Source: Geobacter sp.
GTDB lineage: Bacteria; Desulfobacterota; Desulfuromonadia; Geobacterales; Geobacteraceae
Assembly (NCBI GenBank): GCA_003574885.1
Contig: PJFC01000009.1
Coordinates: 62,001-126,000 of the forward strand
Direction of reading: 5' to 3'
DNA: 64,000 bases
In this document: one piece after another, positions 47,020 to 64,000 of the stretch
Layout: every line of letters starts with the position of its first letter
Position numbering within the stretch: the first letter of the stretch is position 1
Program-made: the position numbers and the translations under genes
The notes under the pieces: generated by a model
The model's input: the letters and a program-made list of their open reading frames with translations, nothing else
Told to the model about the DNA's origin: nothing
Databases searched by the model: none

Positions 47020-48678
47020 TTGGATCAGTTTCAGCAAAGGGGCAGCACTGTATGTCGGTCCACCGGGAATACCGGTCTTGGATGGTGGCGTCCTGCATCC
47101 ACATCCCTCCCGGTGTTGACTGAGGAGCTTGAGACGGCACTTCACCAGGTACGCCTTCCCGTGTACCTGGTGTCCGGCAATGATGCCGTGGTCGCACATA
47201 CGGACGGAACGGCAGGACTTGGCGAAGACCAACCTGGAACTCCCCCCCTTCTTGGGTATGCCCCACCCTGCCCGCCCGAAAACCTGGGAAATGCAGGATT
47301 CTGTGCCGACCTCGGTATTCGCTACCCTTACCTTGGCGGCTCCATGGCAAAGGGGATAAGTTCGGCAACCATGGCGGAAGAACTGGGACACGCCGGGATG
47401 CTCGGTTTCTTCGGTGCTGCCGGTCTTCCTTACGCCGAAGTCGAGGCCGCCGTTGACCGTCTTGCGAAAACCGGTGTCCCCTACGGGGTCAACCTGATCC
47501 ATTCCCCCCACGAACCGGAACTGGAAAAGGCCCTGGCTGACCTTTACATCCAGAAAAAGGTGCGGATCGTGGAGGCATCGGCTTTTCTCGCCTTAACCCT
47601 CCCCCTCGTCCGCTATCGGCTGCACGGTATCCACCGCCTCCCTGACGGCTCCATCGTCGTCCCGAACAGGATTATCGCCAAGATTTCACGGGAAGAACTG
47701 GCAACAAAGTTTTTCTCCCCGGCTCCCGAACAGTTCATCAGGGAACTTGTCGCCAACGGTGATATCACGCCCGCACAGGCAGAACTCGCTGCCCATGTTC
47801 CCCTGGCACAGGACGTCACCGCCGAGGCGGATTCCGGCGGACACACGGACAACCGGCCGGCCATCGCCCTTTTCCCCACCATTCTTTCCCTGGCGGCGCG
47901 CCTCGAACAACAGCACGGCTACGCCTGCAAGCTTCGGGTCGGCCTTGCCGGCGGGATTTCCACCCCGGCAGCAGCAACCGCCGCCTTTGCCATGGGAGCC
48001 GCTTACATCATGGTCGGCTCCGCACACCAGGCATGCATAGAATCGGGAACCTCGCACCAGGTGCGGGAAATGCTTGCCGAAACCCGCCAGGCAGACGTAA
48101 CCATGGCCCCTGCCGCCGATATGTTCGAAATGGGAGTGTCGGTACAGGTCCTCAAGCGGGGGACCATGTTCCCCATGCGTGCCGCCAGGCTGTATGAACT
48201 GTACCGCAGTTTCGGCTGCCTGGAAGATTTGCCCGTGGCGGAACGTGAAAAACTGGAAAAGACCATGTTCAACGCCCCCCTGGACGACATATGGCGCGAC
48301 ACCAGGGCCTATTTCCTGCATCGCGACCCGCGCCAGGTTGAACGTGGTGACCGTGATCCGAAACACCGGATGGCCCTTGTCTTCCGCTGGTACCTGGGAC
48401 AGGCGGCCCACTGGGCAAAGAATGGCGAACCGTCCCGCAAAATGGATTACCAGGTATGGTGCGGCCCTGCCATGGGAGCCTTCAACGAATGGGTTGCCGG
48501 TTCATGCCTTGAAAAACCCGAACGACGCACGACCGTCTCTGTCGCCCTCAACATACTCCACGGCGCTGCTGTTCTCAACCGCGTCAATTTTCTCCGGAGC
48601 CAGGGCCTGCAACTCCCAGCCGGGACCCTGCGGGCGAAACCGCTCGAACTTGCACAGATCAAGGAGTACCTAAGGTGA
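47020..48678 (+). CDS. pfaD: PfaD-like enoyl reductase of a PUFA-type synthase
   Basis: This trans-acting FMN-dependent enoyl reductase has 552 residues and would saturate selected double bonds during chain building. The TIM-barrel is recognisable by LGGSMAKGISSATMAEELGHAGMLGFFGAAG (landmarks), GVNLIHSPHEPELE, VGLAGGISTPAAATAAFAMGAAYIMVGSA, and the C-terminal RWYLGQAAHWAKNGE and FNEWVAGSCLEKPERR, both conserved in PfaD. The start is TTG at 47020 with GGAG seven bases upstream. It is first in the operon and its stop overlaps the next start (GTGA). Confidence 0.9.
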   Translation: MDQFQQRGSTVCRSTGNTGLGWWRPASTSLPVLTEELETALHQVRLPVYLVSGNDAVVAHTDGTAGLGEDQPGTPPLLGYAPPCPPENLGNAGFCADLGIRYPYLGGSMAKGISSATMAEELGHAGMLGFFGAAGLPYAEVEAAVDRLAKTGVPYGVNLIHSPHEPELEKALADLYIQKKVRIVEASAFLALTLPLVRYRLHGIHRLPDGSIVVPNRIIAKISREELATKFFSPAPEQFIRELVANGDITPAQAELAAHVPLAQDVTAEADSGGHTDNRPAIALFPTILSLAARLEQQHGYACKLRVGLAGGISTPAAATAAFAMGAAYIMVGSAHQACIESGTSHQVREMLAETRQADVTMAPAADMFEMGVSVQVLKRGTMFPMRAARLYELYRSFGCLEDLPVAEREKLEKTMFNAPLDDIWRDTRAYFLHRDPRQVERGDRDPKHRMALVFRWYLGQAAHWAKNGEPSRKMDYQVWCGPAMGAFNEWVAGSCLEKPERRTTVSVALNILHGAAVLNRVNFLRSQGLQLPAGTLRAKPLELAQIKEYLR

Positions 48679-51600
48679 ACATGGAAGAAGGAAAACCGGA
48701 AATCCCCGCCGGCGCAGCACCGCTGGCCATTATCGGCATCGGCTGCCTCTTTCCCGGGGCTGAGGATCAGAATACCTACTGGGCAAACATCCGTGAAGGG
48801 GTTGACGCCATAACCGATATTCCCTCGACCCATTGGCGTACGGCTGACTACCACGATCCCGACCCCAAAACCGCTGACCACACCTACGGGCAACGGGGGG
48901 GGTTCATCTCTCCTTTTCCCTTCAATCCCTTGGAGTTCAACATCCCTCCGAACACCCTGGAGGCGATCGACACGTCCCAGCTTCTCGGGCTGGTCGCCGC
49001 GGGGCAGGCACTGAAAGATGCCGGCTACGGTCCGGAGAAAGAGTACGACCGGAATCGGGTCAGCGTCATTCTCGGCGTCACCGGTTCCCTCGAACTGGTT
49101 ATCCCCCTGGGGGCCAGACTGGGGCATCCCATCTGGAAAAAAGCCATGAAAGAGGCCGGTATCGACGATACCGTGGCCGAAGACGCGGCAAAGCGCATCT
49201 CCGACTCATATGTCTCCTGGCAGGAGAATTCGTTCCCCGGTCTGCTCGGCAACGTGGTTGCGGGACGGATCAGCAAGCAGTACGACCTGAGCGGAACCAA
49301 CTGCGTTGTGGATGCTGCCTGTGCCAGCTCGCTGAGCGCCCTGCATCTTGCCTCCATGGAACTGGATGCCGGCAAGGCAGACATGGTGGTCACCGGCGGG
49401 ATCGACACCTTCAACGACATTTTCATGTACATGTGCTTCAGCAAGACCCCCGCCCTCTCCCCTACGGGCGACGCCAAACCTTTCGACGCAGGCGCCGACG
49501 GCACCATCCTCGGTGAAGGGCTGGGGATCGTGGTCATCAAGCGGTTGGCCGACGCGGAACGAGACGGCGACAAGATCTATGCGGTTATTCGCGGCATCGG
49601 TTCTTCCAGTGACGGGAAGGGGGATGCGATCTACGCCCCCAGCGCCGCCGGCCAGAAGAAAGCGCTCCTTAACGCGTACCGGCAGGCTGATGTTACGCCG
49701 GAGAGCATAGAACTGATCGAGGCGCACGGGACCGGCACCAAGGTCGGCGATGTGGTGGAAGTCAAGGCCCTGCGCCAGGTCTACGGCGAAGCGGACAGGC
49801 CCTGGTGCGCACTCGGCACCGTCAAATCCCAGATCGGCCACACCAAGGCGGCGGCTGGTGCGGCAGGCCTCATCAAAGTGGCACTTGCCCTCCACCACAA
49901 GGTCATCCCCCCAACCATAAAGGTCAAGAAGCCACTTGATGAAGTAACTTCCGGCCCCACCCCCTTCTACATCAACACTGAGAAACGCCCCTGGATACCC
50001 CGGGCCGGTGGTCCCCGCCGCGGTGCGGTCAGCGCCTTCGGCTTCGGCGGATCCAATTTCCATACCGTCCTGGAAGAGTACCAGCCAAAGATGGTTTCCG
50101 TCGACTGGGACGGCAACACCCAGGTCATCCCCTTTTCCGGTGCCGACATACCGGCCCTGGAAACAGCACTCGCCACCATTACGGCCGACATCCCCTGGAA
50201 CGAGCTCCGGGGCCGGGCCGCCGCGGCGCGGGCCGCCTTCGACGGCAACGCCCCCTGCCGTCTGGCGCTGGTCGTCGAGCGGGACAGGACAAACCTTGCA
50301 GGGCTCTGCACAAACGCCCTGGCAATGCTCCGCAAAAATACCGCCGAACGCTGGAATACACCCGACGGTGCCTGTTTTTCAAGGACAAAACCGGGCAAAC
50401 TGGGCATGGTGTTCCCCGGCCAGGGTGCACAGTATGCCGGCATGCTCCGGGATCTCGCCTGCAGCTTCCCGCAGATGATCGACAGCCTGACCGCGGCGGA
50501 TGACGGACTGATGTTTCCGGACGACATGCGCCTGTCGGACCTGATCTACCCCATTCAGGCATTCGACCCGGCGGCACGGAACCGGCAGGAGGAAGCCCTG
50601 CGTGCCACCGAAGCCGCCCAGCCCGCCATCGGTGCGGTGAGCCTCGGCGCCCTGCGGATTCTGGAATCATTCGGGATAACTGCGGAAGCAGTGGCGGGAC
50701 ACAGTTACGGAGAACTGACCGCCCTCTGTGCCGGCGGCCGCCTTGACGAGACAGCGCTCCACGCCCTTTCCCGTCTGCGGGGCCGCCTTATGGGTGCAGG
50801 CTCCGGCGACAAGGGGGGAATGCTGGCCATTCCCGCTCCACTGGCAACAGTGGAACAGATACTGGCTGAGGAAAAGCTCGAGCTCGTCATCGCCAACAGG
50901 AATGCACCGGCACAGGCCATTCTGTCCGGCTCAAGCGCTGAAATAGACCGGGCCGCAACCATTTTTGCCGCCCGCAAGCTCACCTGCAAGCGGCTGCCGG
51001 TGGCAGCAGCGTTCCATAGCCCCCTGGTTGCCGACGCTGCCACACCCTTCCTGGCCGCACTGGCTGATTTTGACCTCTCTCCCGGGAACATGCCGGTCTA
51101 CGCCAATACCACGGGCGCTCCCTACCCCGCCGATCAGGCAGCGGCAAAAGAGCTCCTCGCCGGCCAACTGGCACGACCGGTGGAGTTTGTCGCGGAAATC
51201 GAAGCCATGTATGCAGCCGGCATCCGTACCTTCGTCGAAGTCGGCCCCGGCGCCCGCCTTACCGGGCTGATAGATGCGATCCTCGGCGAGCAGGATCACA
51301 TCGCCCTTGCCCTCGATGCCTCCTCCGGCAAGCGCTCCGGCATGGTCGACCTGGCACGCACCCTGGCCCAGCTGTCCGTCCTCGGTTACGGTGTCCGTCT
51401 TAAGGCCTGGGACGAAGCATACCGACCTGCCGCACCGTCCACGACGAAGAAGCCGGCCATGACCATTCCGCTGTGCGGCGCCAACTACGTGCAACCAAAA
51501 CCCGCGCGGCCACCGGTGGCACCGAAACCGACCGTAGCAACAGTTTCATCCGCACCCCAGGCCGCCGCCCCGGCTGCGGCCGTTTCGACCGTTGCCGCAC

Positions 51601-54600
51601 CGTCGGCCATCCCGGTCGTTCCCCAGGGGATGCTCGCCGAATCGCTCCGGGTTACCCGGGAGAGCATGGCACTGCTGCAGAAGATGCAGGAGGAGACCGC
51701 CATGCTGCACCGCAGATTCCTGGAGGGACAGGAAACAGCGGGCAGGACCTTTCAGACGCTCCTGGATAACCAGCGCCAGATACTTGCAGGGGGAGGAAAC
51801 ATCGCCCCGGTTGCGCCGTTTGCTTCATGCCGGACGACTGCCGTCCCCACCCCCGCCGTGGAAACGTCGACCCCCCCGGCACCTGTTTCCGCAGCAGTCC
51901 GCCCGCCGGTCACCATGCCGGCAGCGCCACCACAAGCTCCCGCCAACCGGGTTGCGGAGACCCTTCTGGCCGTTGTGAGCGAGAAGACCGGCTACCCTGT
52001 CGAGATGCTCGATCTTGATATGGGGATGGACGCCGACCTGGGGATCGACTCCATCAAACGGGTCGAGATACTTTCCACCCTCCAGGAACGGCTTCCCGGC
52101 GCACCCGTCATCGGTCCCGAGCACCTGGGCACCCTCCGCACCCTGGGGGAAATCGCCCGCCATCTGGGAGCTGGCACCACGCCGCAGGCAGGAGCGGTTG
52201 CTCCCTCTGTTGCACCGGCCGCCGCGAACAACGTGGCGGAAACGCTCCTTGCCGTGGTGAGCGAGAAAACCGGCTACCCTGTCGAGATGCTCGATCTCGA
52301 TATGGGGATGGACGCCGACCTGGGGATCGACTCCATCAAACGGGTCGAGATACTTTCCACCCTCCAGGAACGGCTTCCCGGCGCACCCGTCATCGGTCCC
52401 GAGCACCTGGGCACCCTCCGCACCCTGGGAGAAATAGCCCGCCATCTGGGAGCAGGCATAGCGCCGCAGGCAAGCACACCGGTTGCTCCTTCTGTCGCCG
52501 AAAAATCCGCACCGGCAGAGCAATCAAAACCTGCTGCCTCGGCACACCCTGTCGTTCGGAGCACCATCATCCCGATTCCCCTCGACAGCGAGGACTCCGC
52601 CCCCCTCTCCCCGGCTTCCGGTGAGCTCTGGGTAACCGACGACGGTTCCACCCTTACGGCGGAACTCTGCACCATCCTCCGTGATCGCGGGTTCACACCG
52701 AAACTGATCTCCACCCGCGAGCTCCCCAAGATCACCCCCGCCAGCCTGTCGGGACTTGTGATAACCGCGCCGTTCCAGGGGACGGACGATCTCTTTCTCG
52801 AAGAGGCGTTCCTCCTTCTGCAAAGTGCCGCGCCGGCCCTGCGCCAGGGGGGGACAACCGGAGGCGCGATCTTCACAACCATTTCGCGCCTCGATGGAGC
52901 ATTTGGCACTACTTCCGGGGGACAGCTTGCGGACCCCCTCTCGGGTGGACTGGCCGGTCTCTCCAAGACAGCGGGCCACGAATGGCCCGAGGTTGCCTGC
53001 AAGGCCCTCGATCTGGGACAATTCGCCGATCCTGCGGCAGCGGCACGAGCCATCGCCGACGAGCTGTTTCGTTCCGGGCCGGTGGAAGTGGGACTAACTC
53101 CCGAAGGACGGATAACCCTCAGCCTGACCGAATTGCCGGCAGCCCCTATTCCTGCAGCCTTGCCCGTCAGCAGGGGGGATCTGATCGTCGTCACCGGCGG
53201 CGGCAGGGGAGTGACGGCGGCAGCGGCAGCGGCCCTTGCAGAGGCATGCCAGCCCGTTCTTCTCATCCTGGGAAGAAGCCCGGCACCCACGGAGGAGCCT
53301 GAGTGGCTCCGCAATCTCACGGAAGAGCCGCGCATCAAGCGGGCAATCCTGGAACAGGCCGGAGGGAAACTCCACCCGAGAGAGATCGAGGAGCGCTTCC
53401 GAACGGTTATTTCCGGCCGTGAATTGTCCTCCACCGTGGGCAGAATCGAAGCAGCGGGAGGCAAGGCCCTCTACCGCTCCGTGGATATTCGCGACGGAGC
53501 GGCGGTCAATGCCACCATAGAAGAAATCCGCCGTGAATACGGCCCTGTCCGCGGGATCGTCCACGGGGCGGGAGTGCTTGCCGACCGCCTCATCACCGAC
53601 AAGTCGCGGGAGCAGTTCTCCGCCGTTTACGGCACCAAGGTGGACGGACTCCGTGCGCTTCTGGCCGCAACCCGTAATGACGACCTCCGCTTCATCGCCC
53701 TCTTCTCCTCCTCCACCGGCCGTTTCGGTCGGACCGGCCAGGTGGATTACGCCGTTGCCAACGAAGTGCTCAACAAGCTTGCCCAGGCGGAAATGCGTCA
53801 CCTGCCTGCCTGCCGGACGGTCAGTATCAACTGGGGCCCGTGGGATGGCGGCATGGTGACTCCTGCCCTCAAAAAGGTCTTTGCCGGCGAAGGGATAAGT
53901 CTCATCGGCCTGGCGGAAGGGGTGGATTTTCTTGTCCGGGAAATAGCCGCAACGGATGGTCCGGTGGAGGTGGTTGCCCTTGCCTCTGCTCCAGAGGAAC
54001 TGGCAGCATCCCATCCTCCCGTTCGTTCCCAGGACCTCACGGAAGCGCTGAGTCTGACCCTGACCGTCGACGATTACCCGTTCCTCCGTTCCCATGTACT
54101 GGACGGAAAAGCGGTCCTACCCATGGCAGTGATTGTCGAATGGCTGGCCCACGGAGCGCTCCACGGCAATCCCGGCTTCCGTCTCCGCGGGTTCAACGAC
54201 CTGCGCATCTGCAAGGGGGTTGTTTTTGACCAGTCGACCCCCTGCACCATCCAGTTGCTGGCCGGACGCGCCGTAAAGCGTGAATCGTCCTATCTCGTCC
54301 CGGTCGAGCTTCACAGCATCGGGAAGGGTGGACAGCCGGTCCTCAATGCCCGGGCCGAGATCGTCCTGGCAATGCGGCTCACCGAAGGGATCAGGTCCAT
54401 CATCGAGATTCCCGCGACCCCCTACATTCTTCATAACGGCAAGCTGTACGACCGGGAACGCCTGTTTCACGGCCCGGACCTGCACGGCATCGAGCAGGTG
54501 GACGGCTGCTCGGCAAAGGGGATCGCCGCCGCCGTCAAGGTTGCCCCTCCACCGTCAAGCTGGATGAAACATCCCATCCGGAGCACCTGGCTGACCGATC

Positions 54601-54920
54601 CGCTGGTCATTGACAGTGCGTTCCAGCTCATGATCCTCTGGAGTTTCGAGAGGTTCGGCGCCGGTTCGCTTCCCTGCTTCGCCGGCCGCTACCGGCAGTT
54701 CCAGGAGACATTCCCCGAAGAAGGGGTCCAGGTCGTCATCCGTGTAACGGCCGAACGTGAACATGGCGCCACTGCCGACATGGAGTTTCTCGATCGCAAT
54801 TCGGGAAAACTGATCGCCCGGCTGGAAGGATACGAGTGCGTCATCGATCCCTCACTGGAGCGCGCTTTCCAGCGCAACCAGCTACCGCAGGCCGGCTGCG
54901 TGGAACGGGGAGCAGCCTGA
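48675..54920 (+). CDS. pfaA: PUFA-type synthase PfaA: KS-MAT-ACP-ACP-KR-DH
   Basis: This 2081-residue iterative megasynthase has the domain order of PfaA. Residues ~10-460 are a ketosynthase with catalytic Cys216 (DAACASS), EAHGTGT and a His in QIGHTKA. Residues ~565-880 are a malonyl transferase (PGQGAQYAGM, Ser677 in GHSYGE). A Pro/Ala linker follows, then two ACPs with the pantetheine Ser at 1126 and 1220 (LGIDSIKR). Next is a ketoreductase with its structural half (~1310-1790, TGGGRGVT, Tyr1692), then a polyketide-type dehydratase (HVLDGKAVLP, His1807; DSAFQ, Asp1980). Start is GTG 48675 or ATG 48681. No phosphopantetheinyl transferase lies in the window. Confidence 0.93.
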   Translation: MNMEEGKPEIPAGAAPLAIIGIGCLFPGAEDQNTYWANIREGVDAITDIPSTHWRTADYHDPDPKTADHTYGQRGGFISPFPFNPLEFNIPPNTLEAIDTSQLLGLVAAGQALKDAGYGPEKEYDRNRVSVILGVTGSLELVIPLGARLGHPIWKKAMKEAGIDDTVAEDAAKRISDSYVSWQENSFPGLLGNVVAGRISKQYDLSGTNCVVDAACASSLSALHLASMELDAGKADMVVTGGIDTFNDIFMYMCFSKTPALSPTGDAKPFDAGADGTILGEGLGIVVIKRLADAERDGDKIYAVIRGIGSSSDGKGDAIYAPSAAGQKKALLNAYRQADVTPESIELIEAHGTGTKVGDVVEVKALRQVYGEADRPWCALGTVKSQIGHTKAAAGAAGLIKVALALHHKVIPPTIKVKKPLDEVTSGPTPFYINTEKRPWIPRAGGPRRGAVSAFGFGGSNFHTVLEEYQPKMVSVDWDGNTQVIPFSGADIPALETALATITADIPWNELRGRAAAARAAFDGNAPCRLALVVERDRTNLAGLCTNALAMLRKNTAERWNTPDGACFSRTKPGKLGMVFPGQGAQYAGMLRDLACSFPQMIDSLTAADDGLMFPDDMRLSDLIYPIQAFDPAARNRQEEALRATEAAQPAIGAVSLGALRILESFGITAEAVAGHSYGELTALCAGGRLDETALHALSRLRGRLMGAGSGDKGGMLAIPAPLATVEQILAEEKLELVIANRNAPAQAILSGSSAEIDRAATIFAARKLTCKRLPVAAAFHSPLVADAATPFLAALADFDLSPGNMPVYANTTGAPYPADQAAAKELLAGQLARPVEFVAEIEAMYAAGIRTFVEVGPGARLTGLIDAILGEQDHIALALDASSGKRSGMVDLARTLAQLSVLGYGVRLKAWDEAYRPAAPSTTKKPAMTIPLCGANYVQPKPARPPVAPKPTVATVSSAPQAAAPAAAVSTVAAPSAIPVVPQGMLAESLRVTRESMALLQKMQEETAMLHRRFLEGQETAGRTFQTLLDNQRQILAGGGNIAPVAPFASCRTTAVPTPAVETSTPPAPVSAAVRPPVTMPAAPPQAPANRVAETLLAVVSEKTGYPVEMLDLDMGMDADLGIDSIKRVEILSTLQERLPGAPVIGPEHLGTLRTLGEIARHLGAGTTPQAGAVAPSVAPAAANNVAETLLAVVSEKTGYPVEMLDLDMGMDADLGIDSIKRVEILSTLQERLPGAPVIGPEHLGTLRTLGEIARHLGAGIAPQASTPVAPSVAEKSAPAEQSKPAASAHPVVRSTIIPIPLDSEDSAPLSPASGELWVTDDGSTLTAELCTILRDRGFTPKLISTRELPKITPASLSGLVITAPFQGTDDLFLEEAFLLLQSAAPALRQGGTTGGAIFTTISRLDGAFGTTSGGQLADPLSGGLAGLSKTAGHEWPEVACKALDLGQFADPAAAARAIADELFRSGPVEVGLTPEGRITLSLTELPAAPIPAALPVSRGDLIVVTGGGRGVTAAAAAALAEACQPVLLILGRSPAPTEEPEWLRNLTEEPRIKRAILEQAGGKLHPREIEERFRTVISGRELSSTVGRIEAAGGKALYRSVDIRDGAAVNATIEEIRREYGPVRGIVHGAGVLADRLITDKSREQFSAVYGTKVDGLRALLAATRNDDLRFIALFSSSTGRFGRTGQVDYAVANEVLNKLAQAEMRHLPACRTVSINWGPWDGGMVTPALKKVFAGEGISLIGLAEGVDFLVREIAATDGPVEVVALASAPEELAASHPPVRSQDLTEALSLTLTVDDYPFLRSHVLDGKAVLPMAVIVEWLAHGALHGNPGFRLRGFNDLRICKGVVFDQSTPCTIQLLAGRAVKRESSYLVPVELHSIGKGGQPVLNARAEIVLAMRLTEGIRSIIEIPATPYILHNGKLYDRERLFHGPDLHGIEQVDGCSAKGIAAAVKVAPPPSSWMKHPIRSTWLTDPLVIDSAFQLMILWSFERFGAGSLPCFAGRYRQFQETFPEEGVQVVIRVTAEREHGATADMEFLDRNSGKLIARLEGYECVIDPSLERAFQRNQLPQAGCVERGAA
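51948..52452 (+). repeat. Tandem ACP-coding duplication
   Basis: Two ~222-bp ACP-coding units repeat with a period of 282 bp (94 codons). Between 52017-52148 and 52299-52430 the DNA is identical for 132 bp including silent positions; the outer parts differ at several bases. Such identity points to recent duplication or ongoing gene conversion. Confidence 0.9.
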
Positions 54921-54923
54921 CCT

Positions 54924-57900
54924 ATGCAGCAAGCATCATCAGTGGCAATCGTCGGAATCGGGGGGATATTTCCCGACGCACCGGATCTTCAGCGTTTCTG
55001 GGATAATATACGCAACAGTCGCAGCGCCACCCGGGACGTTCCGCACGGAAGATGGCTCCTGCCTGCCGACGCTGCCTATGGTGCGGAAAAGGGTGCACCG
55101 GACCACGTTTATTCGCGCCGCGGCTGTTTCATAGACGGACTCCCCCCCCTGTCGGCTCTTGACGGTCTCTCCCTTAACCTGGAACGTCTGGCCGCACTTG
55201 ATCCCCTGTTTCACCTCCTGCTCCATGCGGGAAAAAGGGCGTTCGACGACGGCATCACCGACCGGCTCGACCGTTCCCGTGTGGGGGTGATCATTGGCAA
55301 CCTGGCCCTGCCGAGCGAGAAATCCGCCGCCCTTACCCGCCAATGGTTGGGAAGGACCTTCGAAGAGAAACTCCTCGGCAGCTCTCCCGATCAGACATCA
55401 ACCACCGACCCCCTCAACAGGTACGTTGCCGGCCTTCCCGCCGGCCTCCTCGCCCACGCCCTTGGCCTTGGAGGGGGGAGCTGTACCCTTGACGCCGCCT
55501 GCGCCTCATCCCTTTACGCCATCAAGCTCGCCGCCGACGAACTCCTCGCCGGTCGTGCCGACGCCATGCTGACCGGTGGCCTCTCCCGCCCCGACCCCCT
55601 CTATACCCAGATGGGCTTCTCCCAGCTCCGCGCCCTTTCCCGGCGGGGCATCTGTTCCCCCTTCGATGCAGCCGGAGACGGTCTCGTGGTCGGCGAGGGG
55701 TCCGGCATATTTCTGCTCAAGCGGACAGAGGACGCCCTGGCCCACGGTGACAGGATCTACGGAATCATCCGCGGTATCGGCCTTTCCAATGACGTCGGAG
55801 GAAGCCTGCTCGCCCCCATGGCCGAGGGGCAGCTGCGTGCCATGCGCGCCGCCTATGCCCGGGCGGGGTGGAACCCCGGCGACGTCGACCTGATCGAGTG
55901 CCACGCCACCGGCACCCCGGTAGGAGACGCGACCGAAGTGGCCAGCCTCCGGGAACTCTGGGGTGAAACCCCGCTACCGGAAGAGCGCTGCGTCATCGGC
56001 TCGGTCAAGTCCAACATCGGCCACCTCCTCACCGCCGCAGGCGCTGCCGCCCTGACAAAGGTTCTGCTCGCCATGACAGAGGGGACACTTCCCCCCACAG
56101 CAGGATTTACGGCCCCCCAGCCGGCAATGGATCTTGACAACTCACCATTCCGCGTCCTGACAGCCAGTACCCCCTGGCAGCGTCGTGGCGACCGGATTCC
56201 CCGGAGGGCTGCTGTCAGCGCCTTCGGCTTCGGCGGCATCAACGCCCACTTGCTCGTGGAGGAATGGCTTCCCGACACCGCCTACAGTTCCCGTACAACC
56301 CTCTCCTCCACAACGTCCCAACGCCCGCGCATCGCGGTTGTCGGCATGGATGCCCGTTTCGGTCCCTGGCAGTCCCTCCCGTCATTCCAGGAACGGGTTC
56401 TCGGCGGTGACACGGACAGAGAGCCCGCAGCACCCCGAACATGGTGGGGAGCTGAAGAGAGCGCCTGGTTTCGTGAAGAGGGGTACCACACGATCCCGTT
56501 CAACGGCTACTTCCTGGATAAGGTGACGGTTGCAGCCGAGCAGTTCCGGATACCGCCGCGCGAGATCGAGGAGATGCTCCCCCAGCAGCTCCTCATGCTC
56601 AACTCTGCTGCCGGCGCATTGGCGGATGCGGGGATGTCCCGGGAAGACAATCTTCGCTCCGGTGTCTTCATCGGCATTGCCCTCGACCTCAACTCGACCA
56701 ATTTCAGCTTCCGCTGGTCTCTTGCCCAACGGGCAACGGAGTGGGGAAACAGGCTGGGTAACCCCCTCACCGCCGACGAAGCAGCGGCCTGGACCACTTC
56801 ACTCCGTGACGCAGCCGGCCCGTCACTTACGGCCAACAGGACCATGGGGGCTCTCGGGAGCGTGGTGGCAAGCCGCATAGCCCGGGAATTCCGCGTCGGA
56901 GGTCCCAGTTTCACCATCTCCAGCGAAGAAAATTCCGGTATCCGCGCCCTGGAAACCGCGACCCGGCTCCTCCAGGCCGGAGATATCGACAGTGCGCTTG
57001 TGGGTGCCGTCGATCTCGCCGGGGATCTGCGCGCGGTCCTCGGCCACCACGGAGATCGCCCCTATTCCCCTTCCGGCCGGGCACTTCCCTTCGACAACCG
57101 TGCCGATGGGGGTATCGTCGGCGAAGGTGCGGCGGCGGTCGTCCTCAAGCGGCTCGAAGACGCAGAACGGGATGGCGACCGTATCTATGCGATTATTTGC
57201 GGAGTCGGCTCCGCCGGCGGGGACACGGTAACCCCGGGTAGTACACCCTATCGGCAGGCGTTGGAGCGGGCCTATGCCGACGCCGGCGTTGCACCTTCCA
57301 CCGTCAGCCTGCTGGAAGGCCATGGCAGCGGAAACCCGGCGGAAGATCGCATGGAAGCCCAGTCATTGGCCGCTTTCTTCGGTGATCTGCACCTTCCCGG
57401 GCGATCCTGCGCCCTCTCCAGCGTGGCAGGTGACATCGGCCAGACCGGCGCAGCCTCCGGTTTCGCCTCCTTTGTCCGGGGATGCCTCGCCCTTCACCGG
57501 GAAATCATCCCTTCCTGCCGTGGCGTGGAAAACCCCCTGGCGGACCTCGTCGGCAAGGGTCCGTTCTATCTCCCCCCGACCCCCCGCTACTGGCTCCGCA
57601 ACCGGGCCGACGGTCCGCGCCGCGCAGGGATCAGCTCTTTCGGCGTGGATGGTACCTGCTGCCACGTTGTGCTCGAAGGGTGGGAAACCAGCCCGGAGCT
57701 GGAACGTATCTCTGCGGTTGAACCCGGGGCCGAATTCCTCTTCACCCTGGGAGGAAACAGCGCTGAAGAGATTAAACTAAAACTTGATGGGTTGTCACAC
57801 AACCTGCGGGAAAACAACAATTCAACTCTCTATACTCTTGCCCGTGAGTGGCACGTCAGGGAGACAGCAACACCGTCCGGTCCCCTCACCCTGTCCCTGG

Positions 57901-60900
57901 TCGCCCGGAACCGGGAGGAACTGACCGCGCTCATCCACCAGGGGAATCAGACCCTTGCTTCCGGCAGTATCGTCTCCACCCTGTCACCCGTCCTCCGCGA
58001 CCGGTTGTTTTACTCCACCTCCCCCCTGGGGCGCGACGGAAAGATCGCCTTCGTCTTTCCCGGTTCGGGGAACCATTACCACGGCATGACCCTGGAGCTC
58101 TCCGCCCGCTGGCCCGGGATATTCCGTCGCCAGGACCGTGAAAACCTCTACCTCCGCAGCCAGTTCCAGCCGGAACTCTTCTGGAATGGGCCACTTCAGA
58201 CTGAGATCGACGACCATCGCGCCGTCATCTTCGGCCAGGTGGCTACGGGGTGTGCGGTCAGTGATGTGGTTCGGTCCTTCGCCATTCAACCGGCGGCGGC
58301 CATCGGCTACAGCCTCGGCGAATCGGCCGCGCTGTTCGCCATGGGCGCCTGGCGTGACCGGGACGGCATGCTGACGAGGATGCAGGCATCGACCCTCTTC
58401 ACCCGCGACCTTGCCGGTGAATGCCGGGCAGCCCAACGAACCTGGAAACTGAAGGAAGGAGCCACCGTTGACTGGAGTATCGGCGTGGTGGAGGCAACTG
58501 CCCGCGAAGTCCGCCAGGCCCTTCGCTCCACGGCCCGCGTCTACCTCCTCATCGTCAACACTCCCGACGAGTGCGTCATCGGTGGCGACGCCAAAGGGGT
58601 CAAACGGCTCGTCGCCATGCTCGGCTGCAGGTTCTTTCCACTGCACGGGGTCACCACGGTCCATTGCGAGGTGGCGCGCGAAGTGGCGGAGCCCTACCGG
58701 AACCTCCATCTTTTCCCGACCACACCCCCCAAGGGGATTACCTTCTACAGTGGCGCCAAGGGAGAAGCATACGACGTGAACAGGGAGAGTGCCGCTGACT
58801 CAATCCTCGCCCAGGCTCTCGACGGGGTCGATTATCCTGCCGTCATCGAATCTGCCTTCGACAGCGGCATACGGATTTTCCTCGAAATGGGTCCGGGGGG
58901 TTCCTGCAGCCGGATGATCGACCGTATCCTCGACGGCCGCCCCCATCTTGCCCGGTCAGCCTGTATTCCGGGTCAGGATACGGTATCATCCGTCCTGCGC
59001 CTGCTGGGAAACCTTGCGGCAGAGGGTGTGCCCATGGACCTTTCCCCGCTCTACACGGCGGAACCGCTGCAGCTCCAGCCGAAACGGGCGGACCACCTGA
59101 TTCACATCCACGCCGGAGGCACACCGTTTCAGCCGCCGTTGCCCCGCAAAACGACCGCTGTTCCTCCCGCGCCACACCCCCCGGTTGCCGCTGTCAGAAA
59201 CGAAAGAGCGACCGGACCGGCCACATGCGGTGCCAGTCACAGCGTTACTCCACCCCGGGCCATACCTCCTCAGGCTGGGGATAACCTACCTGCGCATGCC
59301 GGTGATAACGTCCACCCGTTATCTGCCGTGGAAGCGCTCCTGCCCGGCTTTGCGGCTGCACAGGATGCACAGCTCAAGGCGCACGAGGCGTATCTGAACT
59401 TCAGCGACGGGCTCGCCCGGACCATGGCGGATACCATTGCCTTCCAGCTTTCCCTTCAGCAGATGATCGAAGCTGCCGGAGACGGGGATTTCGCGGCGAC
59501 GGCGCCGGTGGCACCTTTGCAACCGGCCGTTAACGCCGCCTTTGATCGGGAGATGTGCCTGGAATTCGCCCGAGGGAGCGTGGGGAGGATGCTCGGTCCC
59601 GAATTCGCCGAAGCAGACAGCTTCCCGACACGGGTGCGGCTCCCCGATGACCCCCTCATGCTCGTCGACCGGATCATGACGGTAGAGGGGGAAGCAAAAT
59701 CAATGACCAGCGGAAGGGTGGTCACCGAGCACGACATCCACCCCAACGCCTGGTATCTGGACGGCAATCGCATCCCCACCTGTATCGCCGTTGAGGCGGG
59801 TCAGGCAGACCTCTTTCTCTCCGGCTATCTGGGTGTCGACTTCATCACCCGGGGACTGGCGGTCTACCGTCTCCTCGACGCGGTGGTGACCTTTCATCGC
59901 GGTCTTCCCGGACCGGGAGAGACCATCCACTACGATATCCGGATCGAGCGCTTCTTCCGCCAGGGGGAAACCCACCTCTTCCGCTTCCTCTTCGACGCCA
60001 CGGTGAACGGGGAACCGCTCCTCACCATGCGGGACGGCTGTGCAGGCTTCTTTTCAGCTGCGGAGCTCGAAGCGGGCAAGGGAATCGTCAGGCCGGCCCT
60101 CGACCTTCGTCCCCGCACCGGCACACGCCCCGTAGAGTGGGTAGAACTGGTTCCCATGGCACGGGAGAGTTATGATGCCGGTCGGCTTGACCGCCTCAGG
60201 AAAGGTGACCTTAACGGCTGCTTCGGAAGCTCCTTTGCCGACCTGCCGATTACCCACCCCCTCACCATCCCCGGTGGCAGGATGGAACTGGTCCACCGGG
60301 TTATGGAACTCGACCCCGCCGGCGGTCGCTACGGCATGGGCATCATCCGCGCCGAGGCGGATATCCGCCCCGACGACTGGTTCCTCACCTGCCATTTCGT
60401 CGACGACCGGGTCATGCCCGGCACCCTCATGTACGAGTGCTGCATGCACACCCTCCGCATCTTCCTCCTCCGGATGGGATGGGTTGCCGAGTCGGGCAGT
60501 GCGGGATGGGAGCCGGTGCCGGGGGTTGCGAGCCAACTCCGCTGCCGGGGACAGGTACTGGAAACGACAAAAATCGCCGCCTACGAGGTGAGCGTCCGGG
60601 AGCTGGGATACAGCCCCGAGCCGTACGCCATCGTGGACGCCCTCATGTACGCCGACGGCAAGCCGATCGTCGAAATCACCAGCATGTCGGTCCGGCTCAC
60701 CGGAACGACGAAGGAACAGCTGCTGGCTCTCTGGCAACATGGACAAGGGCGCGGCAAGCAGCGCCCCGACAGTGACGAATCCATACAGAAGCCCGCCATC
60801 TACACCAAGGAGCAGATCCTCGCCTACAGCAACGGCAAGCCGTCCGAAGGGTTCGGCGAACCGTACCGGATATTCGACAGCGGACGGAAGATCGCCCGGC

Positions 60901-61877
60901 TCCCCGGCCCCCCCTTCCAGTTCATGGACCGGGTCACTGCCGTCAGGGGAGAACCGTGGCAGATGGTCGCAGGCGCCATGGCGGAAGCCCAGTACGATGT
61001 ACCGGCCGATGCCTGGTATTTCAAGGCCGACTGCCAGCCTCGTATGCCCTTCTCCATTCTCCTGGAGGCGGCCCTTCAGCCCTGCGGCTGGCTGGCAGCC
61101 TACGTCGGTTCGGCCCTCGCCTCCCCCACCGACATCTCCTTCCGCAACCTGGGAGGAAGCGCGATCCAGCACCGGTCCGTAACCCCGGAGAGCGGCACCC
61201 TGACAGCCACGGCAACCATGAAGAAAGTAGCCACCAGCGGCGGCATGATCATCCAGGAGTACGATTTCACCGTAGCGGACCGGCAGGGAATCCTCTACGA
61301 AGGGGAGACCATGTTCGGCTTTTTCTCCCGCGAAGCCCTCGCCAACCAGGTGGGAATCCGTGACGCGGCCATATACGCGCCGACGGCGGACGAGACAGCG
61401 CGAGGGATGAGCATTCGCTACCCCGACCTCCCCCCTTACCCGGAGAAACAGCTCAGAATGATAGACTGGGTTGAGTTGTATGTGCCGGACGGAGGGCCGG
61501 CGGGACTTGGCTACCTGCGGGGACTCAAGGAGGTAGATCCGGACGAGTGGTTCTTCAAGGCCCACTTTTACGAGGACCCCGTGACCCCCGGCTCCCTTGG
61601 CCTGGAATCGTTTCTGCAGCTCCTCAAGTTTGCCGCCGTGGAGCGGTGGGGATGGCAGGAAGGGACGGTCCTGGCCGCCACTGCCCTGGAAAGGCGTCAT
61701 CTCTGGCTCTACCGGGGGCAGATCGTACCGGAAAACAGCCTGGTGACGGTACATGCCTGGATCACCGCCGTGGATGAGCAGGAGCGGATACTCACCGCCG
61801 ACGGTTTCCTGTCGGTGGACGAAAAAATAATTTACCAGATGAATGATTTTACGGTGCAGATGGAGCAGAAAATATGA
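54924..61877 (+). CDS. pfaC: Fused PfaC/PfaB-type synthase: KS-CLF-AT-DH-DH
   Basis: This 2317-residue protein has a ketosynthase (1-455, Cys193 in DAACASS, ECHATGT, SNIGH). A KS-like chain-length factor (465-920) follows, where the Cys position is Glu669 (SSEENS). An acyltransferase (1035-1360, PGSGNHY, Ser1130 in GYSLGES) stands where PfaB is separate in Shewanella. After a Pro/Ala linker come four hot-dog folds making two FabA-like dehydratases, with active-site His1824 (CHFVDDRVMPG) and His2214 (AHFYEDPVTPG). The order matches the myxobacterial Pfa3 protein, but the acylglycerolphosphate acyltransferase at its end is absent. It begins 3 bp after pfaA and overlaps oleA (ATGA). Confidence 0.92.
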   Translation: MQQASSVAIVGIGGIFPDAPDLQRFWDNIRNSRSATRDVPHGRWLLPADAAYGAEKGAPDHVYSRRGCFIDGLPPLSALDGLSLNLERLAALDPLFHLLLHAGKRAFDDGITDRLDRSRVGVIIGNLALPSEKSAALTRQWLGRTFEEKLLGSSPDQTSTTDPLNRYVAGLPAGLLAHALGLGGGSCTLDAACASSLYAIKLAADELLAGRADAMLTGGLSRPDPLYTQMGFSQLRALSRRGICSPFDAAGDGLVVGEGSGIFLLKRTEDALAHGDRIYGIIRGIGLSNDVGGSLLAPMAEGQLRAMRAAYARAGWNPGDVDLIECHATGTPVGDATEVASLRELWGETPLPEERCVIGSVKSNIGHLLTAAGAAALTKVLLAMTEGTLPPTAGFTAPQPAMDLDNSPFRVLTASTPWQRRGDRIPRRAAVSAFGFGGINAHLLVEEWLPDTAYSSRTTLSSTTSQRPRIAVVGMDARFGPWQSLPSFQERVLGGDTDREPAAPRTWWGAEESAWFREEGYHTIPFNGYFLDKVTVAAEQFRIPPREIEEMLPQQLLMLNSAAGALADAGMSREDNLRSGVFIGIALDLNSTNFSFRWSLAQRATEWGNRLGNPLTADEAAAWTTSLRDAAGPSLTANRTMGALGSVVASRIAREFRVGGPSFTISSEENSGIRALETATRLLQAGDIDSALVGAVDLAGDLRAVLGHHGDRPYSPSGRALPFDNRADGGIVGEGAAAVVLKRLEDAERDGDRIYAIICGVGSAGGDTVTPGSTPYRQALERAYADAGVAPSTVSLLEGHGSGNPAEDRMEAQSLAAFFGDLHLPGRSCALSSVAGDIGQTGAASGFASFVRGCLALHREIIPSCRGVENPLADLVGKGPFYLPPTPRYWLRNRADGPRRAGISSFGVDGTCCHVVLEGWETSPELERISAVEPGAEFLFTLGGNSAEEIKLKLDGLSHNLRENNNSTLYTLAREWHVRETATPSGPLTLSLVARNREELTALIHQGNQTLASGSIVSTLSPVLRDRLFYSTSPLGRDGKIAFVFPGSGNHYHGMTLELSARWPGIFRRQDRENLYLRSQFQPELFWNGPLQTEIDDHRAVIFGQVATGCAVSDVVRSFAIQPAAAIGYSLGESAALFAMGAWRDRDGMLTRMQASTLFTRDLAGECRAAQRTWKLKEGATVDWSIGVVEATAREVRQALRSTARVYLLIVNTPDECVIGGDAKGVKRLVAMLGCRFFPLHGVTTVHCEVAREVAEPYRNLHLFPTTPPKGITFYSGAKGEAYDVNRESAADSILAQALDGVDYPAVIESAFDSGIRIFLEMGPGGSCSRMIDRILDGRPHLARSACIPGQDTVSSVLRLLGNLAAEGVPMDLSPLYTAEPLQLQPKRADHLIHIHAGGTPFQPPLPRKTTAVPPAPHPPVAAVRNERATGPATCGASHSVTPPRAIPPQAGDNLPAHAGDNVHPLSAVEALLPGFAAAQDAQLKAHEAYLNFSDGLARTMADTIAFQLSLQQMIEAAGDGDFAATAPVAPLQPAVNAAFDREMCLEFARGSVGRMLGPEFAEADSFPTRVRLPDDPLMLVDRIMTVEGEAKSMTSGRVVTEHDIHPNAWYLDGNRIPTCIAVEAGQADLFLSGYLGVDFITRGLAVYRLLDAVVTFHRGLPGPGETIHYDIRIERFFRQGETHLFRFLFDATVNGEPLLTMRDGCAGFFSAAELEAGKGIVRPALDLRPRTGTRPVEWVELVPMARESYDAGRLDRLRKGDLNGCFGSSFADLPITHPLTIPGGRMELVHRVMELDPAGGRYGMGIIRAEADIRPDDWFLTCHFVDDRVMPGTLMYECCMHTLRIFLLRMGWVAESGSAGWEPVPGVASQLRCRGQVLETTKIAAYEVSVRELGYSPEPYAIVDALMYADGKPIVEITSMSVRLTGTTKEQLLALWQHGQGRGKQRPDSDESIQKPAIYTKEQILAYSNGKPSEGFGEPYRIFDSGRKIARLPGPPFQFMDRVTAVRGEPWQMVAGAMAEAQYDVPADAWYFKADCQPRMPFSILLEAALQPCGWLAAYVGSALASPTDISFRNLGGSAIQHRSVTPESGTLTATATMKKVATSGGMIIQEYDFTVADRQGILYEGETMFGFFSREALANQVGIRDAAIYAPTADETARGMSIRYPDLPPYPEKQLRMIDWVELYVPDGGPAGLGYLRGLKEVDPDEWFFKAHFYEDPVTPGSLGLESFLQLLKFAAVERWGWQEGTVLAATALERRHLWLYRGQIVPENSLVTVHAWITAVDEQERILTADGFLSVDEKIIYQMNDFTVQMEQKI

Positions 61878-62917
61878 AGTATTCCCGTGTACATATCGAG
61901 GCGCTCGGCTACGAGCTGGCACCGGTGGTGGTGACCTCCGCCGAACTGGAAAAGCGCCTTGAACCGCTCTACAAGGCGCTCCATTTTACGCCCGGACAAC
62001 TGCAGGTGCTGACCGGCATCCGGGAGCGGCGCTGGTGGGAGCCGGGATACCCCCTTTCACGGGGGGCGATCGCCGCCGGGAAAAAGGCCCTCGCCGCCAC
62101 GGGAATATCCGCCGACGACATAGGCGTACTCGTCTACACCGGCGTCTGCCGGGAGCAGTTCGAACCGGCGACCGCCTGCCGCGTCGCGGCAGGACTCGGC
62201 ATTGGCGGGAAAACCATGATCTATGATCTGTCCAACGCCTGTCTTGGCGTTCTCAACGGCATCATCGACGTGGCGAACAGGATCGAGCTCGGCCAGATCA
62301 GGGCCGGCCTCGTCGTCTCCTGTGAAAGCGCCCGGGACATCAATGACATCATGATTGCCGACATGCTCGAAAAGCTGAGCATGGACCACTTCGCCTCGTC
62401 CCTCGCCACCCTTACCGGAGGTTCGGGAGGAGTAGCAGTCCTCCTTACCGACGGCTCCTTCGGATCGGCCACCGGCCGGCGGCTTCTGGGGGGGATGGCC
62501 CAGGCAGCCCCCGAACACCACGGCCTCTGCCTCTGGGGGATCGCCCCGGACGGACGGGGAGGATATGCCCAGTCCATGCGCACCGATGCGGTGAACGTGA
62601 TGAACAACGGGGTAGAGCTCGGGCTGCGCACCTGGGACGCCTTTCTCCCCGAGATTGGCTGGCGGCCTGAAGACGTGGACAGGGTAATCTGCCACCAGGT
62701 CGGGTCGGCACACCAGAGCACCATTCTCCGCACCCTGGGTATACCCGTCGAAAAGGACTTCACCACCTTCGAATTTCTCGGCAACATGGGAACGGTCTCC
62801 CTCCCTCTCACCGCAGCCCTCGCGGAAGAGCGGGATATCCTCTCCCCCGGCGATCGGGTCGCCTTTCTCGGTATCGGGAGCGGGTTGAACTGCCTGATGC
62901 TCGGGTTGGAGTGGTAG
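61874..62917 (+). CDS. oleA: OleA-type thiolase (head-to-head acyl-CoA condensation)
   Basis: OleA joins two fatty acyl thioesters by Claisen condensation to a beta-keto acid, the first step of long-chain olefin synthesis. The 347 residues have catalytic Cys123 (DLSNACLGV), His274 (ICHQVGSAH) and the Asn in FLGNMGTVSLPL. Glu97 (CREQFEPAT) sits 26 residues before the Cys, matching OleA Glu117 and not FabH. The start overlaps the PUFA synthase stop, so the two are translationally coupled. FabH-like condensing enzymes are the alternative, less likely given oleB downstream. Confidence 0.9.
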   Translation: MKYSRVHIEALGYELAPVVVTSAELEKRLEPLYKALHFTPGQLQVLTGIRERRWWEPGYPLSRGAIAAGKKALAATGISADDIGVLVYTGVCREQFEPATACRVAAGLGIGGKTMIYDLSNACLGVLNGIIDVANRIELGQIRAGLVVSCESARDINDIMIADMLEKLSMDHFASSLATLTGGSGGVAVLLTDGSFGSATGRRLLGGMAQAAPEHHGLCLWGIAPDGRGGYAQSMRTDAVNVMNNGVELGLRTWDAFLPEIGWRPEDVDRVICHQVGSAHQSTILRTLGIPVEKDFTTFEFLGNMGTVSLPLTAALAEERDILSPGDRVAFLGIGSGLNCLMLGLEW

Positions 62918-63185
62918 AATAGAGCAGATTTCTTCAGATTCGCCAGGAGAGGCGGAATCTTGGGAGCAGAGGGAAAAGGTCGGGCGGTGAGCGGACACCC
63001 GCCCGCTGTCTCAAAAATAGCCACTGTCCCGATATCCGGCAAGGGCAGCAAAGAGGAAACCGGTGCAGGTCCGCAGCACGACCTCGACCGGAACGGACGA
63101 GATTCCGCCACTCCATGCCGACAGAGCGATGACACATGACATACCTACTTAATCTACATTGATTTAAACAAGGTTCCCCCTTTAC
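62918..63185 (+). other. Spacer between oleA and oleB with two hairpins
   Basis: This 268-bp gap is the only sizeable one in the cluster. It shows GATTCGCC...GGCGGAATC (62937-62959, one-base bulge) and CGGGCGG...CCGCCCG (62983-63007). No U run follows, so neither is a clear terminator. No open frame with a ribosome binding site was seen. The end is AT-rich before oleB. Confidence 0.55.
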
Positions 63186-64000
63186 ATGAACATCGACATC
63201 AAAAATGAATACCCCTTCACCGATCACCATCTCGATCTGGACGGGCTGAACTACCATTACCTGGACGAAGGGAGCGGCGACCCGGTGGTGATGGTTCATG
63301 GCAACCCCTCCTGGTCCTTCTACTACCGGAATCTCGTCCTCGCCCTGCGGGACCGTTACCGCTGCATCGTTCCCGACCACATCGGCTGCGGGCTCTCCGA
63401 CAAACCGGATGACGACCGTTACGACTATACCCTTTCCCGGCGGGTGGACGACCTGGAGAGGCTTCTCGACCATCTGGACATCAGGGAAAACATAACCCTG
63501 GTGCTCCACGACTGGGGGGGAATGATCGGCATGGCCTTCGCCGTCCGTCATCCGGAACGGATCAGGCGACTGGTCATCCTCAACACCGCGGCTTTCCACC
63601 TCCCCAAGGAAAAGCCGTTCCCTCTCGCCCTGAAAACCTGCCGCGACACCTGGGTCGGCACCCTGCTCGTGCGCGGCTTCAACGCCTTCAGCCTCGCCGC
63701 CTCCTTCGTGGGATGCAAACGGAACCCGATGCCGGCCGAACTGCGCCGGGCCTACCGCTCCCCCTACGACAGCTGGCAGAACCGGATCGCCACCCTCCGC
63801 TTCGTCCAGGACATCCCCCTGACACCGGGTGACCGGAACTACGATCTGGTGAGCAACGTCGCGAAGGGACTCGACGGTTTCAAGAATCTCCCCATGCTCA
63901 TCTGCTGGGGGGAACTTGACTTCGTCTTCGACCTCCACTTCCTGAACGAGTGGCAGCGGCGTTTCCCCGCCGCCGAGGTCCACCGCTTCCACGACTGCGG
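63186..64000 (+). CDS. oleB: OleB-type alpha/beta hydrolase (beta-lactone decarboxylase), cut by window edge
   Basis: OleB removes CO2 from the beta-lactone intermediate to give the cis-olefin. The visible 271 residues start MNIDIKNEYPFTDHHLDLDG and resemble haloalkane-dehalogenase-fold proteins: VHGNPSWSFYYR (oxyanion hole), nucleophile Asp109 in LVLHDWGGMIG, and LICWGELDFVFD at the later acid position. An Asp nucleophile in HDWGG fits OleB and dehalogenases, and linkage to oleA favours OleB. The gene continues past 64000. oleC and oleD would be expected next. Confidence 0.87.
   Translation, partial: MNIDIKNEYPFTDHHLDLDGLNYHYLDEGSGDPVVMVHGNPSWSFYYRNLVLALRDRYRCIVPDHIGCGLSDKPDDDRYDYTLSRRVDDLERLLDHLDIRENITLVLHDWGGMIGMAFAVRHPERIRRLVILNTAAFHLPKEKPFPLALKTCRDTWVGTLLVRGFNAFSLAASFVGCKRNPMPAELRRAYRSPYDSWQNRIATLRFVQDIPLTPGDRNYDLVSNVAKGLDGFKNLPMLICWGELDFVFDLHFLNEWQRRFPAAEVHRFHDC

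What the first reader, a model, noticed from the sequence alone, without database searches (positions are those of the whole stretch)
47020..64000. PUFA-type synthase physically joined to the olefin (ole) pathway
The run pfaD-pfaA-pfaC/B-oleA-oleB is on one strand, with overlaps of 4 bp between pfaD/pfaA and pfaC/oleA and 3 bp between pfaA and pfaC. Known background: OleA condenses two acyl chains head to head, and Shewanella with both pathways makes a C31 nonaene from PUFA precursors, though its two loci are separate. Here the coupling suggests a dedicated system in which the iterative synthase supplies a polyunsaturated acyl chain directly to OleA. The inferred product is a long polyene hydrocarbon or ketone, not a membrane phospholipid.
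Basis: partly seen in the sequence, partly recalled or inferred. Interest (0 to 1): 0.85.

Follow-up and report, generated by a model that had tools for sequence, protein, structure and literature searches.

The report
Known PUFA-synthase–olefin gene cluster
A run of bacterial genes that very probably builds a long, highly unsaturated hydrocarbon by feeding fatty chains from one enzyme assembly line into a head-to-head joining pathway; the same gene order is already described in the related bacterium Geobacter bemidjiensis.

Summary
Window 47020-64000 holds pfaD, pfaA, a fused pfaC/B, oleA and the start of oleB on one strand. Past the window the contig goes on with oleC, oleD and a phosphopantetheinyl transferase, giving pfaD-A-C/B-oleABCD-pfaE.

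It is not new. PMC4882568 (passages) says that Geobacter bemidjiensis carries pfaD, A, B, C, oleA, B, C, D and pfaE in tandem and makes the C31:9 hydrocarbon. PMC3098273 (passages) calls this synthase Type I and proposes that it feeds the Ole pathway.

In the window's order both parts occur in 90 of 141 genomes held and are linked in 86 of those 90; the four exceptions are one genus.

Not shown: direct hand-over of chains to OleA, the exact product here, or absence of PUFA from phospholipid. Photobacterium profundum SS9, with adjacent operons, makes EPA and no detectable hydrocarbon (PMC6463001, passages).

The parts
47020..48678 (+). pfaD: enoyl reductase of the PUFA-type synthase; TTG start preceded by GGAG
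   Evidence: TIGR02814 605.5 bits, cut-off 449.25; same TTG start and GGAG in same-genus genome G025, locus L095
48675..54920 (+). pfaA: KS-AT-ACP-ACP-KR-DH; GTG start overlapping the pfaD stop by 4 bp
   Evidence: TIGR02813 1494 bits, cut-off 1010.1; Pfam KS, AT, 2 PP-binding, KR, PS-DH; ACP motifs at residues 1121 and 1215
54924..61877 (+). pfaC/B fusion: KS-CLF-AT-four FabA-like (hot-dog) units; 3 bp gap after pfaA
   Evidence: Pfam: 2 KS, 4 FabA, 1 AT; residues 6-859 match PDB 6riw 'ORF10' at 421 bits, and both read EENS in the second KS where an active KS has its cysteine motif (the comparison with the KS motif is by eye); AT matches PfaB family TIGR02816 at 113.8 bits, below its cut-off of 144.3
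61874..62917 (+). oleA: head-to-head (Claisen) acyl-condensing thiolase; start overlaps the pfaC stop by 4 bp
   Evidence: PRK09258 493 bits, cut-off 285; best solved chains 3fk5, 3row and the 4kti/5vxf/6b2r series over the full length; E97 (followed by P), C123, H274, N304 conserved in 81 of 81 aligned sequences, window plus 80 loci
62918..63185 (.). oleA-oleB intergenic gap, 268 bp, no + strand terminator-like site listed
   Evidence: about 242 and 253 bp in the two same-genus loci L015 and L016
63186..64000 (+). oleB, first part (runs to window-equivalent 64094 on L002); then oleC L002:3092-4732 (64091-65731), oleD L002:4729-5724 (65728-66723) and PPTase L002:5700-6422 (66699-67421), all + strand, outside the window
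   Evidence: for coordinates; Pfam and NCBIfam: oleB abhydrolase (NCBIfam haloalkane dehalogenase 168.7 bits, below its cut-off 241), oleC PRK09274 770 bits over cut-off 478 with olefin beta-lactone synthetase models next and below their cut-offs, oleD best match NF042422 (460.7, below its cut-off 580), PPTase PF01648 63.9 bits over cut-off 25

Best explanation
This is a complete Type I (Geobacter-type) pfa-ole cluster. PPTase loads the ACP domains of PfaA; the iterative synthase (PfaA, PfaC/B, PfaD) builds a polyunsaturated acyl chain, most likely 16:4n-3 as predicted for Shewanella; OleA joins two such chains head to head to a beta-keto acid; OleD reduces it; OleC closes a beta-lactone; OleB decarboxylates the lactone to a long polyunsaturated olefin, most likely C31:9 (hentriacontanonaene). 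Shown here: gene content, order, catalytic residues of OleA, linkage across relatives. From the literature: C31:9 in G. bemidjiensis, Pfa dependence in Shewanella, Pfa plus OleA giving a 31:8 ketone in E. coli. Inferred: the product in this organism and the ACP-to-OleA hand-over.
For: Complete set on one strand and one contig, families identified. Only one match over the family cut-off for OleA and one for OleC in the genome, both in this cluster. OleA E, C, H, N conserved in 81 of 81; Glu-117 followed by Pro and the active-site Cys are named for OleA in PMC7064751 (passages), the His and Asn roles are recalled. Of 141 genomes of the order: both 90, pfaD only 5, OleA only 1, neither 45; in the six single-part genomes the contig ends inside the cluster. 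Linked in 86 of 90 (66 on one contig, 20 more by pfaC lying directly upstream of oleA). Same gene order and C31:9 product reported for G. bemidjiensis (PMC4882568, passages).
Against: All four genomes of genus g19 (G013-G016) have both parts but no pfaC next to oleA, so linkage is not obligatory. P. profundum SS9 with adjacent operons gave no detectable hydrocarbon (PMC6463001, passages). OleD, OleB, the PPTase and the two olefin-specific OleC models fall below their NCBIfam cut-offs. No lipid data for this organism. Only two ACPs seen, against 4-6 in canonical PfaA (PMC3098273).
Confidence: 0.87

Rival explanations
1. The synthase mainly makes a free or phospholipid-bound PUFA, and OleABCD uses it only in part or under some conditions; linkage reflects shared inheritance.
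For: P. profundum SS9: adjacent operons, EPA made, no detectable hydrocarbon; S. oneidensis makes both EPA and hydrocarbon (PMC6463001, passages). Shulse & Allen raise the same option (PMC3098273, passages).
Against: In the order the two parts are present or missing together: both in 90, neither in 45 of 141, with the contigs of the 6 single-part genomes ending inside the cluster. That is hard to explain if the PUFA alone were the useful product.
Confidence: 0.1
2. The chain delivered to OleA or the product differs from C31:9 (other chain length or unsaturation, or a mixed condensation with an ordinary fatty acyl group). This is a variant of the best explanation, not its opposite.
For: Only two ACPs seen in PfaA, and the pfaC/B fusion has the AT between CLF and the dehydratase units, unlike Type A. 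Product specificity cannot be read from sequence.
Against: G. bemidjiensis with the same gene order makes C31:9 (PMC4882568, PMC3098273); OleA is 79-82% identical to that of the named Geomonas and Citrifermentans species in the list.
Confidence: 0.2
3. Neighbouring but functionally separate pathways, put together by chance.
For: Four genomes of one genus keep both parts without adjacency.
Against: 86 of 90 linked in the order; the same order of genes in loci titled Planctomycetota, Gemmataceae, Isosphaeraceae and Elusimicrobia; co-dependence shown in Shewanella and E. coli (PMC6463001).
Confidence: 0.02

Closest known systems
Geobacter bemidjiensis Bem pfa-ole cluster (PMC4882568)
   Same: pfaD, A, B, C, oleA, B, C, D, pfaE in tandem, as stated in the paper; makes C31:9
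   Different: Not shown to be the same species; the paper was read in passages only and its figure is not held, so ACP number and spacing were not compared
Type I secondary lipid synthase of Shulse & Allen 2011 (PMC3098273)
   Same: pfaBC fusion; hosts Geobacter, Pelobacter, Desulfuromonas and Gemmata; proposed to feed olefin synthesis
   Different: KS phylogeny, one of the criteria for the types, was not redone here
Shewanella pfa + oleABCD (PMC6463001)
   Same: Same two pathways joined through OleA to a C31:9 hydrocarbon
   Different: pfaB and pfaC separate (Type A order in PMC3098273), EPA also made; no separate thioesterase gene (pfaT) among the ORFs of the run here (the rest of the genome was not searched for one)
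Photobacterium profundum SS9 pfa and ole operons (PMC6463001)
   Same: Adjacent operons
   Different: pfaT between them; EPA made, no hydrocarbon detected

Membership tests
[quoted passage not shown]
   P0003 has KS, CLF-like KS, AT and FabA-like units in one ORF; the AT is below the PfaB model's cut-off
[quoted passage not shown]
   No KS tree was built; the pfaC KS part is 66-88% identical in those of loci L015-L074 that hold it, most of them titled Geobacter or relatives
[quoted passage not shown] bemidjiensis) | tested here: met
OleABCD olefin pathway | OleA with catalytic Glu-Pro, Cys, His, Asn | tested here: met
   81 of 81 aligned; full-length match to the 3row/4kti chains (that these are X. 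campestris OleA is recalled)
OleABCD olefin pathway | oleB present, so olefin and not beta-lactone | tested here: met
   L002:2187-3095, abhydrolase with HDWGG (the nucleophile motif is recalled); no curated OleB model was among the matches listed
OleABCD olefin pathway | oleC beta-lactone synthetase and oleD reductase | tested here: met
   Top families PRK09274 (over cut-off), then OlefBLtnSyn models, and oxyalk_red_OleD (these below their equivalog cut-offs)
OleABCD olefin pathway | Makes a head-to-head hydrocarbon | not testable with these tools
   Needs lipid extraction
Canonical EPA synthase (Type A) | Separate pfaB and pfaC; 4-6 ACPs | tested here: not met
   Fused gene, two ACP motifs; the ACP number may be an undercount

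The most novel reading that the evidence does not exclude
In Geobacterales the PUFA-type synthase and OleA form a dedicated hydrocarbon assembly: OleA takes the polyunsaturated chains straight from the PfaA carrier domains (no thioesterase gene in the run, no CoA stage), so the whole PUFA machinery exists only to make a membrane polyene.
Probability: 0.35. Interest if true: 0.45.

Novelty: already known. Interest (0 to 1): 0.2.

Why it matters
The gene order and the idea are in print, so the find itself adds one more genome. What the survey adds is a count: across one order the two pathways are present or missing together and are linked in 86 of 90 carriers, which supports a dedicated hydrocarbon role. 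The role of such hydrocarbons in strict anaerobes is still open (PMC4882568 calls its antioxidant idea speculative), and a genetically tractable member could test it.

Tried and rejected
An assembly artefact: rejected, since the same run is found in a same-genus single-contig genome (G025; pfaD to oleA, oleC end to PPTase; part of pfaA through to PPTase in L016) and in many other assemblies. A wrong pfaD start: the long N-terminus (PfaD model begins at residue 86) looked doubtful, but the TTG start and GGAG are conserved in L095.

My first reading of the 24 genomes without same-contig linkage was that all were assembly breaks; fetching the sequence upstream of oleA showed pfaC there in 20, and not in G013-G016 (G049 needed a second look because its pieces are frame-shifted). 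In G013 only 823 bases upstream are held, so its case alone would not count for much. The contigs of G012, G085 and G100 end in pfaA near its ACP repeats (last matched residues 1110, 1058, 1139), as expected for repeat-caused breaks; G112 and G126 end later in pfaA and G087 just before oleA.

Counting rules: the two matches at E 1.9e-4 were dropped (G021, and a second match in G075), while fragments below the cut-off in G003, G107, G130 were kept (92 genomes over the cut-off, 95 counted); matches of 145 bits or less were dropped as FabH-like paralogues, while the 251-bit fragment of G092 was kept (90 genomes over the cut-off, 91 counted). One search's family also matches 11 of 14 control genomes, none over the cut-off; one search's matches 3 of 14, 1 over the cut-off. 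The match listing was cut, but below those scores. Genomes were not filtered by completeness. The 80 loci were the best of 157, chosen by similarity to this OleA, and overlap with the 141 genomes, so they are not an independent sample. Fisher p for co-occurrence (6e-30) ignores kinship. Not done: trees of KS or OleA, structure prediction, OleA survey outside the order by the genome search.

Full report
Observation. The ORFs stand as described. pfaD (47020-48678) and pfaA (48675-54920) overlap by 4 bp, pfaA and the fused pfaC/B (54924-61877) are separated by 3 bp, pfaC/B and oleA (61874-62917) overlap by 4 bp, and oleB starts at 63186, 268 bp after oleA. Family searches confirm pfaD, pfaA and oleA over curated cut-offs and give the domains of pfaC/B. 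The pfaD TTG start at 47020 follows GGAG and is conserved in same-genus genome G025.

Beyond the window. The window is positions 62001-126000 of a 131,482-base contig. The next bases (L002) hold the end of oleB, then oleC, oleD and a phosphopantetheinyl transferase on the same strand: oleB/oleC and oleC/oleD overlap by 4 bp, and the transferase ORF starts inside the end of oleD. Families: oleC PRK09274 770 bits over its cut-off, with the two olefin beta-lactone synthetase models next but below their cut-offs; oleD best match is the OleD model, below its cut-off; oleB an alpha/beta hydrolase; transferase PF01648. The genome has one OleA and one OleC over the family cut-offs, both here.

Anatomy. 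PfaA has KS, AT, two ACP, KR and a PS-DH domain; PfaC/B has KS, CLF, AT and four FabA-like units; the KS-CLF part matches PDB 6riw over residues 6-859 at 421 bits. OleA keeps E97 (followed by P), C123, H274 and N304 in 81 of 81 aligned sequences, the window's included. Glutamate 117 followed by proline is described as a near-general feature of OleA proteins in PMC7064751 (passages). The two ACP repeats are 223 of 240 bases identical, so an assembly from short reads could have lost copies; the number two should be held loosely. The same motif count gives three in same-genus genome G025 (locus L095).

Distribution in the order. Searching the 141 genomes held for PfaD and OleA, with the counting rules told under Tried and rejected, gives 95 with PfaD, 91 with OleA, 90 with both, 5 with PfaD only, 1 with OleA only, 45 with neither. 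In 66 of the 90 the two are on one contig and strand, OleA 12.9-15.3 kb downstream of PfaD. In 20 of the other 24 genomes the end of pfaC lies directly upstream of oleA, so the contig break falls inside the pfa part. In the six single-part genomes the contig ends inside the cluster.

Wider distribution. Of the 80 loci most similar to this OleA in genome contigs, 73 have a pfaC match upstream, 69 within 300 bp, and 28 with the same 4-bp overlap; 7 have none: L071, L076, L077, L079, L081, L083, L091, of which L081 is at a contig edge and L071 has only 823 bases upstream. Loci titled Gemmataceae (L085), Isosphaeraceae (L093), Planctomycetota (L090, L092) and Elusimicrobia (L082, L089) carry pfaA-pfaC-oleA-oleB in the same order. 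The 4-bp pfaC/oleA overlap is not general: in the same-genus L016 the gap is 123 bp.

Literature. PMC4882568 (passages): G. [quoted passage not shown] PMC3098273 (passages): Type I cluster with pfaBC fusion in Geobacter, Pelobacter, Desulfuromonas and Gemmata; ole genes 'often linked'; Type I proposed to supply olefin precursors. PMC6463001 (passages): Pfa plus OleA gives a 31:8 ketone in E. coli; adjacent operons in P. profundum SS9, where no hydrocarbon was detected. Sukovich et al. 2010, the source for the G. bemidjiensis product, is not held and is cited through these papers. Paper searches answered.

Verdict. Real, complete, and of a kind already described down to the gene order and product in a relative.

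Noticed in passing
L002:6490-7845 (- strand), 3.5 kb past the window end: An integron-type integrase (TIGR02249 368 bits, cut-off 265) lies just behind the PPTase. The ORF after it (L002:7894-8283) has a near-identical counterpart (by eye) near the PPTase in same-genus genome G025 (L102:2750-3175), with a different small ORF between. No attC search was made.
   Followed up: partly
G013-G016 (genus g19); L071, L077, L076, L079: In this one genus oleA is not next to pfaC although both parts are present: a natural unlinking worth comparing for product.
   Followed up: partly
L033:12139-14010; also oleB-oleC gaps over 0.5 kb in L021, L025, L031, L036, L038, L039, L044, L046, L062, L068, L085: Some clusters have extra sequence between oleB and oleC; in L033 it is a 623-aa ORF that reads like a PAS/GAF/GGDEF sensor (by eye, no family search).
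   Followed up: partly
window 52035-52350 approx. (pfaA residues 1121-1225): Nearly identical ACP repeats; contigs of other assemblies (G012, G085, G100) end in this part of pfaA, so ACP numbers in drafts are unreliable.
   Followed up: partly
G050:C1:3671000-3672313: A second, higher-scoring PfaD-family gene (670 bits) far from the pfa-ole cluster of the same genome.
   Followed up: no
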